From Sphingobium arseniciresistens (lineage in GTDB: Bacteria > Pseudomonadota > Alphaproteobacteria > Sphingomonadales > Sphingomonadaceae), in NCBI GenBank assembly GCA_029167225.1, contig JARFNK010000008.1:124001-188000 (forward strand): DNA of 64,000 bases, read 5' to 3'. This document shows, in pieces, positions 3,394-6,924 of this stretch (position 1 is its first letter; each line of letters begins with the position of its first letter). The notes beneath the pieces were generated by a model. That model worked only from the letters and a program-made list of their open reading frames with translations, ran no database searches and had not been told where the DNA came from. The position numbers and the translations under genes were made by a program.

Positions 3394-3587
3394 TGTGCGA
3401 TCCGATGCACGAAGAGGCGAACGTCTTTGCGGCATATCTCCTCATGCCGGAAGCCCTGTTTGCGCCCGCCGTGGCTGGGATTGACCTGTTCGACGAAGAG
3501 CGCGTGGTTAAGATTGCGCGCAAGTTCAGGGTTCCTGTCGCCGCCATTCATTATCGTTTCTGGCTCGCAAAGGAGTTTGGAGCATGA
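3390..3587 (+). CDS. Truncated ImmA/IrrE-like peptidase fragment
   Basis: 65 residues from ATGATG overlapping the upstream stop. EEANVFAAYLLMPEALF followed by a helical part ending in AKKFRV-like sequence (KIARKFRVPVAAIHYRFW) corresponds to the second half of ImmA/IrrE metallopeptidase domains, where E-AN-FAA-LLMP follows the HExxH helix. The HExxH itself is absent, so no protease activity is expected. It is either a shortened family member or a remnant that is still translated within the operon (stop overlaps the start at 3584). Confidence 0.6.
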   Translation: MMCDPMHEEANVFAAYLLMPEALFAPAVAGIDLFDEERVVKIARKFRVPVAAIHYRFWLAKEFGA

Positions 3588-4039
3588 CCGCCGACCACCG
3601 CTGCGGCTCCTGCGGCAAGCCCCTGACGGTCGATAGCCCGCCCTGTGATTGCAGGGGGACGCCGCCGGGATTTGAGCAGGGAGAGGTGACGCAGGCTGAC
3701 CGAGATGTAGCGGCTGACGTATGGCGCGATTATGTGGCCAAGATCGGCGAGGTCATTGTTGAACGGCAAATGCGCGCAGGCAAGTTAGATGAAGGCTTGC
3801 CAAGCATCTTCATGCGCCACCGCCTTGCATTCTCCACGCCAGCGCCAACCGACGCGGAGGCGATGCGGGAGGCGTGTGCGAAGGTGGTCGAGGCATGGCT
3901 TGATCCTGCCAAACGCATCATTGCCGAAGTGAACGGCCTTAGCGACCATGATATCGAAATTGCGCAGAATGTCGCGCGCGGATGCTCCGCCGCAATCCGC
4001 GCCCTTCCTCTGCCCAAGGCCGGGGAGGGGGAAGCGTGA
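3584..4039 (+). CDS. Hypothetical phage protein with N-terminal zinc ribbon
   Basis: 151 residues. The N-terminus carries CGSCGKPL and PPCDCRG, a plausible four-cysteine zinc site, followed by an acidic helical region with no recognised domain. It overlaps the preceding gene by ATGA, and its stop (TGA 4037..4039) shares bases with the start of the IS-disrupted gene (ATG 4039). Function unknown. Confidence 0.65.
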   Translation: MTADHRCGSCGKPLTVDSPPCDCRGTPPGFEQGEVTQADRDVAADVWRDYVAKIGEVIVERQMRAGKLDEGLPSIFMRHRLAFSTPAPTDAEAMREACAKVVEAWLDPAKRIIAEVNGLSDHDIEIAQNVARGCSAAIRALPLPKAGEGEA

Positions 4040-4044
4040 TGTCA

Positions 4045-4052
4045 GTTAAAAT
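4045..4052. repeat. Left 8-bp target-site duplication of the IS
   Basis: GTTAAAAT lies directly outside the left inverted repeat and is identical to 6536..6543. Eight bases is the length generated by ISL3-family elements. Confidence 0.93.
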
Positions 4053-4074
4053 GGTTCTCCGGAATAATGGGTTG
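4053..4074 (+). repeat. IS left inverted repeat
   Basis: 22 bp, matching the reverse complement of 6514..6535 at 18 of 22 positions. Confidence 0.9.
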
Positions 4075-4127
4075 ATCGGCACATAGCGTCGTGACCTCCG
4101 GGAGTCGGATTATCGGGTTGATGGCGG

Positions 4128-4847
4128 TCATGCGGCAAGCAGCGCCTGGCCGATCATTTCGGGAATTCGCGGCACTACGGCGTTGCCGCAGGCGCCAACT
4201 CGGTCCATCCGCTGGGGAACCCCATCAGCCACTCTTGCAGGCATGGGTTCGTCCGAGAAGGAATGTACGTCCCCCGCCGGAGCGCGGCTTTTCGAGAATT
4301 GCTCCCCCCAGCGTTGGAGACGCCGCTCTTCCTCGGTGTGGGGAACATAAGCCGCGATCCAAACTCGGTCTCTGATATGGGCAGCGCCAAGGTCGGCAGC
4401 TTGTATGCAGTGCCAGACCGCATCGTACCCGAGCGCGGCCAAGTCCCCGAGTACGCGACCGAACCACTGACCTCCTCCGCCAGAAAGGAGTTCTGGAACG
4501 TTCTCCACGATCGCGACGCGGGGTCGAAGCTCGCCAATGAGACGGGCGTAATCTGCCCATAGTCCGGAACGATCGCCATCAATGCCCGCTCGGCGACCAG
4601 CTTCGGACAGGTCTTGGCACGGGAATCCCCCGCAGATGATATCGACGGCAATGCCATCAGCGGCAAGTCGATCTGCTGTAAGTTCGCGGATGTCGGCATA
4701 ACAAGGAACCTCTGGCCAATGCTTCGCCAGCACACGCTGGCAAAAGGGATCAATCTCGCAGAACGCAACGGTCTTGAAGCCGCCAGTCCTTTCCAAACCG
4801 AGGTCGAAACCGCCGATACCAGCGAAGAGAGAGAGAACGCGCAGCAT
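4128..4847 (-). CDS. C5-cytosine-specific DNA methyltransferase (IS passenger)
   Basis: 239 residues, from an ATG with GAGG eight bases upstream. Motif I is SLFAGIGGFDLGLE (residues 6 to 19); motif IV is GGFPCQDLS with the catalytic cysteine at 77; motif VI is ENV (115 to 117); motif VIII is RDRVW (159 to 163); motif X is GNAVVPRIPE (221 to 230). The target-recognition region between VIII and X is only about 55 residues, short for the family. It methylates cytosine C5 at an unknown site, and no partner restriction endonuclease is visible. It lies inside the IS, divergent from the transposase. The open frame continues upstream antisense to the transposase, which is a shadow. Confidence 0.9.
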   Translation of the reverse strand: MLRVLSLFAGIGGFDLGLERTGGFKTVAFCEIDPFCQRVLAKHWPEVPCYADIRELTADRLAADGIAVDIICGGFPCQDLSEAGRRAGIDGDRSGLWADYARLIGELRPRVAIVENVPELLSGGGGQWFGRVLGDLAALGYDAVWHCIQAADLGAAHIRDRVWIAAYVPHTEEERRLQRWGEQFSKSRAPAGDVHSFSDEPMPARVADGVPQRMDRVGACGNAVVPRIPEMIGQALLAA

Positions 4848-4860
4848 CTGGATTGCCTCG

Positions 4861-4922
4861 ATAAGTGATATGAGATACTTGCGATAACTCATATGAGAAA
4901 CGGAGGCAATAACTCGTATGCG
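4861..4922. promoter_or_regulatory. Repeat-rich divergent control region in the IS
   Basis: Between the methyltransferase and the ribbon-helix-helix-like gene lie the perfect palindrome CTCATATGAG (4888..4897), a related ATATGAG at 4868, and two direct copies of ATAACTC(A/G)TATG at 4884 and 4909. The second copy overlaps the ATG at 4918. The layout suggests an autoregulatory operator for both directions; the binder is inferred. Confidence 0.55.
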
Positions 4923-5133
4923 AAATATCTCTGCTTGCGAATCAAAAGTCGTATCAGTTACTCCCGCCCGCGTGGGCAGAAAGAAACGATGGGCTGAAGA
5001 CATGCAGGCGCGATTCGCGGAGGGAACCTTCGACCGCATCGCGGCGGTTCTGGTTGGGGAAGAGGACCGGACGGACTTCGTTCGTGAAGCCGTCGAGCGT
5101 GAACTGAAACGGCGGGAGCGCGCCGCGAAGTGA
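4918..5133 (+). CDS. Small ribbon-helix-helix-like protein of the IS
   Basis: 71 residues. VVSVTPARVGRKKRW is a short basic beta-like stretch. It is followed by two amphipathic helices (DRIAAVLVGEEDRTDFVREA and ERELKRRERAAK), which is the pattern of ribbon-helix-helix DNA-binding proteins. Its last codons overlap the GTG start of the transposase (5130), so the two are translationally coupled. It could repress the shared control region or assist transposition. The start at 4918 lies inside the operator-like repeats, so an internal GTG start is also possible. Confidence 0.6.
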   Translation: MRNISACESKVVSVTPARVGRKKRWAEDMQARFAEGTFDRIAAVLVGEEDRTDFVREAVERELKRRERAAK

Positions 5134-6509
5134 GCCTCGAAGGACTGGCGACTGACACGCTGAACCTGCCGAACGTGAAGACGCTCCGCCATGTCGTGAG
5201 CGTCGGGCAGCACACCTACGAATCGGCCAGCATCAACCCCACCGGCCAGTGCTGCATGTTCGCCCGACCGAATGGGACGAAGCGCCAGGTCTTCGCCGAC
5301 ACGCCGCGAGAAGGCATGCCGGCGGTCATTCATCACAAGCGACGCCGCTGGTCCTGCACCGTCTGCGGGGGTTCCCCATATGAGGATCTGCCTTGGGCGG
5401 CGGAGGGACGGAAGATGACCGAGCGGTTGGGCGGGTGGATTCTCGACCAAGCCACACAACGACCTTTCGTTGCCGTCGCCAACGACTGCGGCCTCGATCC
5501 CGGCACCGTCACCAACGTGTTCGAAGAACGGGCGAAGCCCGCGGTCCTTGCCATCAAGACAAAGACGCCTCGCGTCCTCGGCCTGGATGAAAAGCATATC
5601 TTCGGCGGCTTCCGCGCGGTCATGGGCGACATCGAGAAGCGCACCATGTTCTGGATGTTGCCCGCCAGAAATGCCGACACGCTGGGCGCATTCTTCGCGA
5701 AGATCCCGGATCGCGAGCGCGTTGAAGTTGTGACGGTCGATATGTTCAAAGGCTATCGCAAGATCCTGGAGGACTGGTTTCCGACAGCCACGGTGGTGAT
5801 CGACAAGTACCACATCACGCAATACGCCTCGTTTGCGATGGACCGCGCACGGGCAGGTCTGCGCAGTGGGATGAACAGGGGTGAGCGGGTCCGCATGCTT
5901 CGCCGCCGATGGACGCTGCTCAAGCGTCGGCAAAACTGGGAGGCCAACAACTATCGGACCTTCGCGAAGATAAAGGTTCAGTATCCCCAGCTCGCCGAGA
6001 TTTACGAGTGGAAGGAGCGCGCCTGCGAGATCTGGGATTTGACCGACAGACGGGAGGCCGAACAGGCCTATCTCAAGTGGCTGGACGAACTCCCCGGCCC
6101 CTACAGGACGTATTTCAAGCGCTTCACCACCGCCATGAAGAACTGGGGTCCAGAGATATTCAACTACTTCGACCACCGCTTCACGAACGCCTATGTCGAG
6201 CGGCTGAATGGCATGATCGCGGACGCCAACCGTCTGGGTCGCGGCTACAGCTATCGCGTCCTGTTCTTCAAGACGATGCTGCGACATGGCGTTCCCAAGA
6301 CGCGCCCGAAGCGGTTGGACAAGTCCCCGGAGCGCCTTGATGGCGTGGTGCCCCGCGGGCTTGGCGGCAGCATCTTCGGCCTGGACTATCTCGGTAGAGC
6401 AGTGGCCGCGCTTGGCCGCGCAACATGGCGCAGGTTCCGCGATCGGGGCTATCATGGCGTACCGCTTTCAACCCTGAGCGAGGATTTCCGCGACACGTCG
6501 GTTTGGTGA
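5130..6509 (+). CDS. ISL3-family transposase
   Basis: 459 residues from GTG. The order is an N-terminal region with a CxxC (CTVCGG, residues 76 to 81), a helix-turn-helix-like segment (residues 108 to 130), and the DDE catalytic domain with LGLDEKH (D153), VTVDMFKGY (D204), DKYH (225) and NAYVERLNG (E357). Its length is in the normal range for ISL3 enzymes (about 400 to 460). The reading frame is intact and the terminal repeats and target duplication are well preserved, so the element may be recent and active. Confidence 0.93.
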   Translation: MSLEGLATDTLNLPNVKTLRHVVSVGQHTYESASINPTGQCCMFARPNGTKRQVFADTPREGMPAVIHHKRRRWSCTVCGGSPYEDLPWAAEGRKMTERLGGWILDQATQRPFVAVANDCGLDPGTVTNVFEERAKPAVLAIKTKTPRVLGLDEKHIFGGFRAVMGDIEKRTMFWMLPARNADTLGAFFAKIPDRERVEVVTVDMFKGYRKILEDWFPTATVVIDKYHITQYASFAMDRARAGLRSGMNRGERVRMLRRRWTLLKRRQNWEANNYRTFAKIKVQYPQLAEIYEWKERACEIWDLTDRREAEQAYLKWLDELPGPYRTYFKRFTTAMKNWGPEIFNYFDHRFTNAYVERLNGMIADANRLGRGYSYRVLFFKTMLRHGVPKTRPKRLDKSPERLDGVVPRGLGGSIFGLDYLGRAVAALGRATWRRFRDRGYHGVPLSTLSEDFRDTSVW

Positions 6510-6513
6510 TTTC

Positions 6514-6535
6514 CAACCCGATAATCCGCAGAACC
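6514..6535 (-). repeat. IS right inverted repeat
   Basis: 22 bp, beginning 5 bp after the transposase stop; pairs with 4053..4074. Confidence 0.9.
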
Positions 6536-6543
6536 GTTAAAAT
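6536..6543. repeat. Right 8-bp target-site duplication of the IS
   Basis: GTTAAAAT, identical to 4045..4052. Confidence 0.93.
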
Positions 6544-6753
6544 CAACGCTACTGCTCGCCAGTTTGAAATGGTGACAAGCATCGCAATCCAGATTGGTGA
6601 CGAGCATGTGAGGCACGACTTTGGACGGCGCGTCTCAATGTCTCATGCTCGGGCATTGGCACAGCACTATCTGGACATTTTCACCGGGGAGCCAAGCGAG
6701 TTCGCCGCAAATGTCCCCACCCCTTCAACCGAAGGGCACAAGGAACCCGGATC

Positions 6754-6924
6754 ATGACAAGCGGTAAATATTTCACAACATGTGTCGAGTGCGGGAAGCC
6801 TATCGACACATGCCATGGGGTTTGCGCTGAATGCAATGATGCTCATGGATATGAGGTAAAGGCAATCAGCACCGACAGAGATAATACTGCGGTGCGGAAA
6901 CAGTATCAGGATGGAGTGAGATAA
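6754..6924 (+). CDS. Small zinc-ribbon phage protein
   Basis: 56 residues, starting ATGA over the upstream stop. Four cysteines in two pairs (CVECGKP and CHGVCAEC) indicate a zinc site. The next gene starts at the base after the stop. Function unknown. Confidence 0.6.
   Translation: MTSGKYFTTCVECGKPIDTCHGVCAECNDAHGYEVKAISTDRDNTAVRKQYQDGVR

What the first reader, a model, noticed from the sequence alone, without database searches (positions are those of the whole stretch)
4053..6535. An ISL3-family IS that carries a C5-cytosine DNA methyltransferase as cargo
Seen: 22-bp terminal repeats (18/22), perfect 8-bp target duplication GTTAAAAT, an intact ISL3 DDE transposase, a small ribbon-helix-helix-like gene coupled to it, and a complete methyltransferase in the opposite orientation ending 53 bp from the left repeat. 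Known: some IS carry passenger genes, and 8-bp duplications fit ISL3. Inference: self-methylation might protect the element, tune transposition through methylated ends, or change host expression on arrival. I do not know a described element with this combination.
Basis: partly seen in the sequence, partly recalled or inferred. Interest (0 to 1): 0.88.

Follow-up and report, generated by a model that had tools for sequence, protein, structure and literature searches.

The report
Phage-borne transposon carrying split DNA methyltransferase
A small jumping gene sitting in a phage genome carries a DNA-marking enzyme; it belongs to a group of elements, often found in phages, that exchange one passenger gene for another, and the enzyme gene here probably encodes two subunits in overlapping reading frames.

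Summary
In detail: a 2483-bp ISL3-family element (4053-6535) with 18/22 terminal repeats, a perfect 8-bp duplication, an ISL3 transposase and a C5-methyltransferase inside its ends. It is not a one-off. Of 104 related transposase loci tested, 80 have matching ends plus a target duplication (0 of 60 mismatched controls), with passenger DNA nearly always on the left. The closest named relative (Sphingomonas naasensis) has the same core with a PAPS-reductase-like gene instead; others carry methyltransferases, antirepressors or Lar anti-restriction genes. An identical methyltransferase-bearing element sits in two different Vibrio phages with different duplications. Two features were missed: the left end is doubled (65 of 76 elements), and the methyltransferase gene contains a second conserved gene in its +1 frame (4 stops against about 195 expected in 51 genes; Shine-Dalgarno plus ATG in 31 of 51 against 6 expected), probably the motif-IX subunit of an M.EcoHK31I-like split enzyme. 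Passenger-bearing ISL3 elements and split methyltransferases are both known, so this is a new variant. Most likely the cargo protects the phage vehicle from restriction; that, and enzyme activity, are untested.

The parts
4045..4052 (.). left copy of the 8-bp target duplication GTTAAAAT
4053..4074 (+). left terminal repeat (outer copy), 18/22 with the right end
4099..4122 (+). second, inner copy of the left repeat; 4106-4120 matches the right end 15/15
4128..4847 (-). cargo: C5-cytosine DNA methyltransferase, catalytic frame, 239 aa (motifs I-VIII and a motif-X-like GNAVVP); start ATG preceded by GAGG
   Evidence: PF00145 1.4e-44, phrog_363 5.3e-73
4175..4699 (-). nested second gene in the +1 frame of the methyltransferase gene, 174 aa, start ATG preceded by AGAGGT at 8 nt; probable motif-IX subunit
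   Evidence: phrog_1008 3.2e-18; selection tests; coordinates
4865..4922 (.). operator-like array CTCATATGAG (sites at 4865, 4888, 4913), same spacings in L003
   Evidence: 0 of 2000 shuffles of 4848-4990 reach three sites
4918..5133 (+). 71-aa small gene, probable ribbon-helix-helix repressor, overlaps the transposase start by 4 nt
   Evidence: homologues upstream of the transposase in 13 other fetched loci besides the host's own
5130..6509 (+). ISL3-family DDE transposase, 459 aa, GTG start
6514..6535 (-). right terminal repeat
6536..6543 (.). right copy of the target duplication

Best explanation
It is a mobile ISL3-family transposon with one replaceable passenger slot. Kept core: asymmetric ends with a doubled left repeat, a divergent promoter with an operator array, a small probable repressor coupled to the transposase, and the transposase; it inserts with an 8-bp duplication. 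Exchanged slot: between the left end and the core. Here the slot holds a phage-type C5-methyltransferase that is probably two polypeptides from overlapping frames: a catalytic subunit (motifs I-VIII and X) and a nested subunit with motif IX, as described for M.EcoHK31I. The element sits in a phage or prophage and most likely pays its vehicle by methylating phage and host DNA against restriction. Shown: ends, duplication, gene content, different cargo on the same core, operator conservation, selection on the nested frame, the same sister element in two phages. Inferred: repression by the small protein, enzyme activity and two-subunit action, the anti-restriction benefit.
For: 80 of 104 loci with ends and duplication, 0 of 60 controls. 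Same core with a PAPS-reductase-like gene in S. naasensis, operators at identical spacings of 23 and 25 bp. Doubled left end in 65 of 76 elements, 1 of 76 in a mid-element control. Passenger genes are phage accessory genes, among them C5-methyltransferase in 6, Lar in 3 and Dam in 2 of 87 ORFs scanned. Identical element in Vibrio phages K256 and K251 g2 with duplications GAAAAGAG and GAAAAAAG. Cargo C5-methyltransferases scattered on a tree: the common ancestor of four covers 74 of 94 leaves. Tail and lysis genes beside the insertion. Nested frame: 4 stops against 194.7 expected, start signals, protein families.
Against: No activity data of any kind. 24 of 104 loci show no acceptable ends, some cut by contig ends; L003 itself has repeats (19/24) but only 2/8 of a duplication. 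At least 50 of 87 passenger ORFs have no Pfam match at 0.001, so an anti-restriction role is not general. Some elements are on plasmids, so the family is not phage-only. The motif-IX match of the nested protein is not significant by itself (E 0.59; E 0.18 on one sequence and hhalign probability 0.6%). Support values in the methyltransferase tree are mixed (0.22-0.98 on the nodes printed), it covers four of the six Pfam-positive cargo enzymes, and whether the window enzyme's nearest relatives (80-84%) are themselves on such elements is unknown.
Confidence: 0.6

Rival explanations
1. Self-regulatory methylation: the enzyme methylates the element's own ends or promoter and so tunes transposition (recalled precedent: Dam and IS10).
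For: The methyltransferase is divergently transcribed from the same intergenic region as the transposase operon; DNA methyltransferases recur as cargo (6 C5, 2 Dam, 1 D12, 1 N6_N4 of 87 ORFs).
Against: The same core works with unrelated cargo; the target motif is unknown; the four cargo C5-enzymes placed on a tree do not form one lineage.
Confidence: 0.1
2. Neutral hitch-hiking: the transposase captures whatever phage gene lies beside it through a cryptic left end, and the cargo gives no benefit.
For: Cargo is very diverse and many passenger ORFs are without known family; the doubled left repeat would make alternative end use easy (inference).
Against: Cargo ORFs are mostly open and named classes recur (C5-methyltransferase 6, Bro-N 5, PAPS_reduct 4, Lar 3 of 87), and both frames of the window methyltransferase are intact.
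Confidence: 0.22
3. The nested frame is not a gene; its openness and similarity are by-products of codon bias in the methyltransferase gene.
For: The genes are related, so z-scores are inflated; synonymous resampling ignores codon-pair and dinucleotide effects; 5 of 49 genes are not significant singly at 0.05; the third frame also exceeds resampling (z 34.8 against 63.6); ATG close to motif IV alone is not enriched beyond the simulated range (41 of 51, mean 34.5, maximum 42).
Against: Sharp borders of stop depletion: 117 against 115.7 expected before, 4 against 194.7 within, 102 against 78 after; the signal holds at 41-46% GC; ATG with a Shine-Dalgarno-like word in 31 of 51 genes against 5.95 expected, maximum 13 in 300 simulations.
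Confidence: 0.07

Closest known systems
ISPst2 (ISL3 family, 2,985 bp; PMC6305408, passages read)
   Same: ISL3 element with two passenger genes, 8-bp duplications, 24-bp ends GGGTATCCGGAATTTCTGGTTGAT / GGGTATACGGATTTAATGGTTGAT much like those of this family
   Different: passengers are an ArsR regulator and a permease, not a DNA methyltransferase; whether its left end is doubled was not tested
ISPpu12a (ISL3 family, 3372 bp, CzcD passenger; PMC4447125, passage read)
   Same: ISL3 element with passenger genes
   Different: metal-transport cargo; no methyltransferase mentioned in the passage
Element of Vibrio phages K256 and K251 g2 (L043, L048; not described as an element in the records)
   Same: 2484 bp, ISL3 transposase (32.7% identity over 85%), DNA methyltransferase inside the ends, 8-bp duplications, doubled left end
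   Different: 345-aa methyltransferase of D12 adenine type (by its motif, my reading; one of 87 ORFs matches D12), same direction as the transposase; no match to the small gene (one search was run before this locus was fetched, so not tested)
M.EcoHK31I (PMC3404938, passages read)
   Same: large polypeptide with motifs I-VIII and X, small polypeptide with motif IX; small-subunit length about 176 aa (recalled) against 174 aa here
   Different: EcoHK31I belongs to a restriction system; here no endonuclease is in the element. That its small gene is nested in another frame of the large one is recalled, not read (paper not held)

Membership tests
ISL3 family of insertion sequences | ISL3-type DDE transposase | tested here: met
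   PF01610 1.4e-48; NF033550 235.8 bits against cut-off 180
ISL3 family of insertion sequences | 8-bp target duplication and imperfect terminal repeats | tested here: met
   8/8 and 18/24
ISL3 family of insertion sequences | transposition activity | not testable with these tools
   only indirect: identical sister element in two Vibrio phages
IS with passenger genes (as ISPst2, ISPpu12) | non-transposition gene inside the ends | tested here: met
   methyltransferase 4128-4847 inside 4053-6535
M.EcoHK31I-type two-polypeptide C5-methyltransferase | large subunit with motifs I-VIII and X but not IX | tested here: met
   alignment to HhaI ends at residue 166; GNAVVP near the C-terminus; no motif-IX-like stretch seen by eye
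M.EcoHK31I-type two-polypeptide C5-methyltransferase | separate polypeptide with motif IX | tested here: inconclusive
   nested frame under selection; best weak alignments fall on motif IX of 4onj (E 0.59) and of L224 (E 0.18)
M.EcoHK31I-type two-polypeptide C5-methyltransferase | both polypeptides needed for methylation | not testable with these tools
   needs an expression experiment
M.EcoHK31I-type two-polypeptide C5-methyltransferase | sequence homology to the EcoHK31I subunits | not tested
   the EcoHK31I sequences were not at hand

The most novel reading that the evidence does not exclude
There is a large, so far undescribed lineage of ISL3 transposons with a doubled left end and a swappable passenger slot, common in phages, that acts as a shuttle for phage counter-defence and immunity-control genes; and the nested two-frame design, known from split restriction methyltransferases, is the usual architecture of orphan phage C5-methyltransferases, with the second subunit left unannotated in nearly all of them.
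Probability: 0.55. Interest if true: 0.82.

Novelty: new variant of a known kind. Interest (0 to 1): 0.68.

Why it matters
Transposons are usually seen as burdens on compact phage genomes. A family found in many phages that carries methyltransferases, anti-restriction and antirepressor genes gives a concrete route by which phages could exchange such genes without homologous recombination, with borders that a script can recognise. Separately, if many phage C5-methyltransferases need a nested second subunit, then expressing the annotated gene alone may wrongly suggest an inactive enzyme, and many methylation specificities may have been missed. Both points can be tested directly.

Tried and rejected
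Read-out from the transposase stop through the right end into the interrupted phage gene: possible in the window, but only 15 of 76 elements have such an open frame, so dropped as a family feature. ATG close to motif IV alone as a mark of selection on the nested frame: not convincing (41 of 51, simulated mean 34.5, maximum 42); the test with upstream stops and ribosome sites was clear. First genome-contig scan with a single protein found no relative; the second scan, allowed for that case, used an alignment and worked. Fold of the nested protein alone: poor, mean pLDDT 59.3, so no fold search was made. Empty site of this insertion: not found, the right-hand piece of the interrupted frame matches only the host itself among 397 family genomes. 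Same-clade elements beyond S. naasensis: 19 transposases of 46-78% identity are held as proteins, but their DNA was not fetched. A fourth operator-like site in the window, seen by eye near 4948, has 3 mismatches and is not counted.

Rows dropped before counts. (104 loci = window, 13 of the 14 genome loci, 7 of the 8 phage-record loci fetched, 25 of the 26 viral loci, 58 of the 80): left out L016 (short partial match), L017 (apparently the same insertion as L003), L049 (no acceptable ends) and second-scan loci on contigs already present. The plasmid loci L130-L137 were done apart: ends with an 8/8 duplication in 3 of 8. Searches are capped lists (best 80). One search added L003, L021 and L038 by hand, without a full duplication; 87 ORFs chosen by eye from those, mostly from the 104 of 100 aa or more, leaving out overlapping, doubtful or duplicate ORFs, and putting the methyltransferase (window) and the PAPS-reductase ORF (L003) in place of overlapping mechanical ORFs; 48 of the 80 loci, chosen by eye as full-length matches, plus the window; 51 of 52 after adding L031, L035 and L040 and dropping one as 85% or more identical; 45 of 51 nested frames (4 without an ATG in the start region and 2 short ones left out).
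Full report
1. The element. The sequence at 4053-6535 is a 2483-bp unit bounded by 22-bp repeats that agree at 18 positions and flanked by a perfect GTTAAAAT duplication. It encodes an ISL3 transposase, a 71-aa gene overlapping the transposase start by GTGA, and, divergently, a C5-methyltransferase. By eye, the insertion lies four codons into a small open frame whose ATG overlaps the stop of the gene 3584-4039. Six of ten neighbouring proteins match PHROGs families, among them tail fibre, tail and endolysin, so it sits in a phage or prophage. It is single-copy in a 6.6-Mb genome; apart from that genome itself, 0 of 93 same-genus genomes (E <= 1e-60) and 0 of 396 family genomes (E <= 1e-90) have this transposase. 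Protein databases hold 19 transposases of 46-78% identity (P0124-P0142).

2. A family with a passenger slot. An alignment of these led to 14 genome loci, among them a relative in Sphingomonas naasensis (L003, 59%), and to 26 viral loci. L003 keeps the small gene (75%) and the transposase but has a PAPS-reductase-like gene (PF01507 7.5e-15) where the window has the methyltransferase. A wider alignment gave a capped list of 80 viral loci, many on contigs already seen. Of 104 loci tested, 80 have recognisable ends with an 8-bp duplication (8/8 with at least 15/24 end identity, or 7/8 with at least 17/24), while 0 of 60 mismatched left/right pairings pass. L003 is not among the 80: its ends agree at 19/24, but the flanks share only 2/8. 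The 78 unique elements (three of them added by hand) have a median length of 2231 bp, with a median 841 bp left of the transposase and 30 bp right of it; one (L036) carries genes on the right instead. For comparison, a plain ISL3 element such as ISArsp7 is 1,451 bp (PMC6305408, passage).

3. Cargo. Of 87 passenger ORFs scanned, Pfam finds C5-methyltransferase in 6, Bro-N in 5, PAPS_reduct in 4, Lar restriction alleviation in 3, Dam in 2, YopX in 2, and D12 and N6_N4 methyltransferase in 1 each; at least 50 have no match at 0.001. The commonest PHROGs matches are PAPS reductase (7), C5-methyltransferase (6) and antirepressor (up to 6 per family); PADLOC's top families are type II methyltransferases. 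L034, L035 and L040 have nearly the same left ends but carry a PAPS-reductase-like gene and, in the latter two, C5-methyltransferases. Four cargo C5-methyltransferases (window, L031, L035, L040) are scattered over a tree of 94 enzymes: their common ancestor covers 74 of 94 leaves (mixed support), so capture probably happened more than once.

4. Movement between phages. Among 50,697 phage records, 30 encode a related transposase. Vibrio phages K256 and K251 g2 carry an identical 2484-bp element (identical stretch 2889-5379 of L043 and L048) among different neighbouring genes, with duplications GAAAAGAG and GAAAAAAG; its cargo is annotated as a DNA methyltransferase. Plasmids have such elements too, with an AbiEii-type gene in L130 and nucleotidyltransferase plus DUF86 genes in L137; 3 of 8 plasmid loci tested have ends with an 8/8 duplication. 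The family is therefore not restricted to phages.

5. Two structural marks. First, the left terminal repeat occurs twice: an inner copy of at least 15/21 within 220 bp of the left end is present in 65 of 76 elements, against 1 of 76 in a mid-element control. Start-to-start spacing is 44-46, 55-57 or 66-67 bp in 63 of the 65; the steps of about 11 bp suggest helical phasing, hence a second transposase site (inference). Second, the divergent promoter holds CTCATATGAG-like sites at 4865, 4888 and 4913 (0 of 2000 shuffles reach three) and L003 has such sites at the same spacings of 23 and 25 bp. The operator array thus goes with the core, not with the cargo, and the small protein is the natural candidate repressor (inference).

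6. The hidden second gene. The +1 frame of the methyltransferase gene matched methyltransferase families on its own (phrog_1008 5.1e-18) and 119 proteins. To avoid bias I took methyltransferase genes found through the catalytic frame. In 44 of 49 the +1 frame is open longer than in synonymous codon shuffles at P < 0.05, and in 31 of 49 none of 300 shuffles reaches it, including five genes of 41-46% GC. On 51 aligned genes, stops in the +1 frame number 117 (115.7 expected) before the nested frame, 4 (194.7 expected) within it and 102 (78 expected) after it; amino-acid conservation is 0.321 against 0.228, sd 0.0015. The third frame also exceeds resampling (z 34.8 against 63.6), which shared wobble positions can explain. 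Wobble conservation of the catalytic frame rises from about 18 codons before motif IV, dips in the variable region and ends after motif X. An in-frame ATG in the start region is found in 47 of 51 genes (28.1 expected), and one with a Shine-Dalgarno-like word in 31 of 51 (5.95 expected, maximum 13 in 300 simulations). In the window this is AGAGGT, 8 nt, ATG at 4699, giving 174 aa. In four annotated phage genes picked by the catalytic frame, the nested frame is longer than expected in Zerg (P 0.012), Synechococcus phage Ssp-JY42 (0.036) and Sulfitobacter phage phiGT1 (0.046), not in Microbacterium phage R1 (0.186). Of 44 phage records matched by the nested protein, 40 are listed and 37 of these have the match under a gene annotated as a methyltransferase or methylase. 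Among 14 plasmid records matched, three tested genes, picked by the nested frame itself, give P 0.001 (an archaeon), below 0.001 (Paenibacillus) and 0.085 (Leptolyngbya). Relatedness of the genes inflates z-scores; the sharp borders and start signals do not rest on them alone.

7. What the nested gene is. Its conserved end (consensus NPxxVEWLMGFPxGWT) aligns best, though not significantly, on motif IX of a plant DRM enzyme (E 0.59) and of a monomeric enzyme of the host genome (E 0.18 on one sequence). The catalytic frame aligns to HhaI only over residues 2-166, motifs I-VIII, and has a motif-X-like end. This is the division reported for M.EcoHK31I: large subunit with motifs I-VIII, X and the predicted target-recognition domain, only motif IX in the small one (PMC3404938, passage read). 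That the EcoHK31I small gene is nested in the large one in another frame is my recollection; the original paper is not held. AlphaFold of the nested protein alone is poor (mean pLDDT 59.3) except around a helix at 152-159 in the motif-IX stretch, as would fit a subunit.

8. Known and new. ISL3 elements with passenger genes are published (ISPst2, ISPpu12a; passages), and ISPst2's ends resemble those of this family. My ten literature searches (an open-licence library only) listed no paper that I recognised as describing an ISL3 element with a DNA methyltransferase, a phage-associated cargo ISL3 family, or a nested gene in phage C5-methyltransferases; I read passages of eight listed papers (searches cover nine look-ups, PMC5009743, PMC8227390, PMC3404938, PMC3439449, PMC6456624, PMC6305408, PMC4447125, PMC7371123, PMC9208149), no whole paper. 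ISfinder and REBASE could not be searched. I therefore call it a new variant of a known kind, with the wider reading in the section on the most novel reading.

Noticed in passing
L043 2891-5374 and L048 2891-5374 (Vibrio phages K256, K251 g2): Identical 2484-bp methyltransferase-transposase element in two different Vibrio phages with different 8-bp duplications; the records annotate two genes, no mobile element. Twenty Vibrio records are among the 30 phage hits.
   Followed up: partly
L022:3462-4001:+: A T5orf172/MUG113 (GIY-YIG-like) domain fused in one ORF to the homologue of the small regulatory gene.
   Followed up: no
L130 and L137 (P. putida and Rhodanobacter plasmids): The same kind of element on plasmids with AbiEii-type or nucleotidyltransferase/DUF86 (toxin-antitoxin-like) genes in the slot; L137 has 24/24 ends.
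   Followed up: partly
proteins P0064 and P0120: Database proteins that seem to switch between the catalytic and the nested frame of the methyltransferase gene: natural fusions, decay or sequencing errors.
   Followed up: no
L036 1008-4563: The one element with passenger genes on the right side, among them a radical-SAM/DUF5131-like protein.
   Followed up: no
window 6507-6757: The transposase stop overlaps a GTG whose frame runs through the right end into the interrupted phage gene; 15 of 76 elements have such a read-out frame.
   Followed up: yes
L232 (Methanomethylovorans plasmid), L234 (Paenibacillus plasmid): The nested frame also lies in C5-methyltransferase genes of an archaeon and a Bacillota plasmid, neither annotated with a second gene.
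   Followed up: partly
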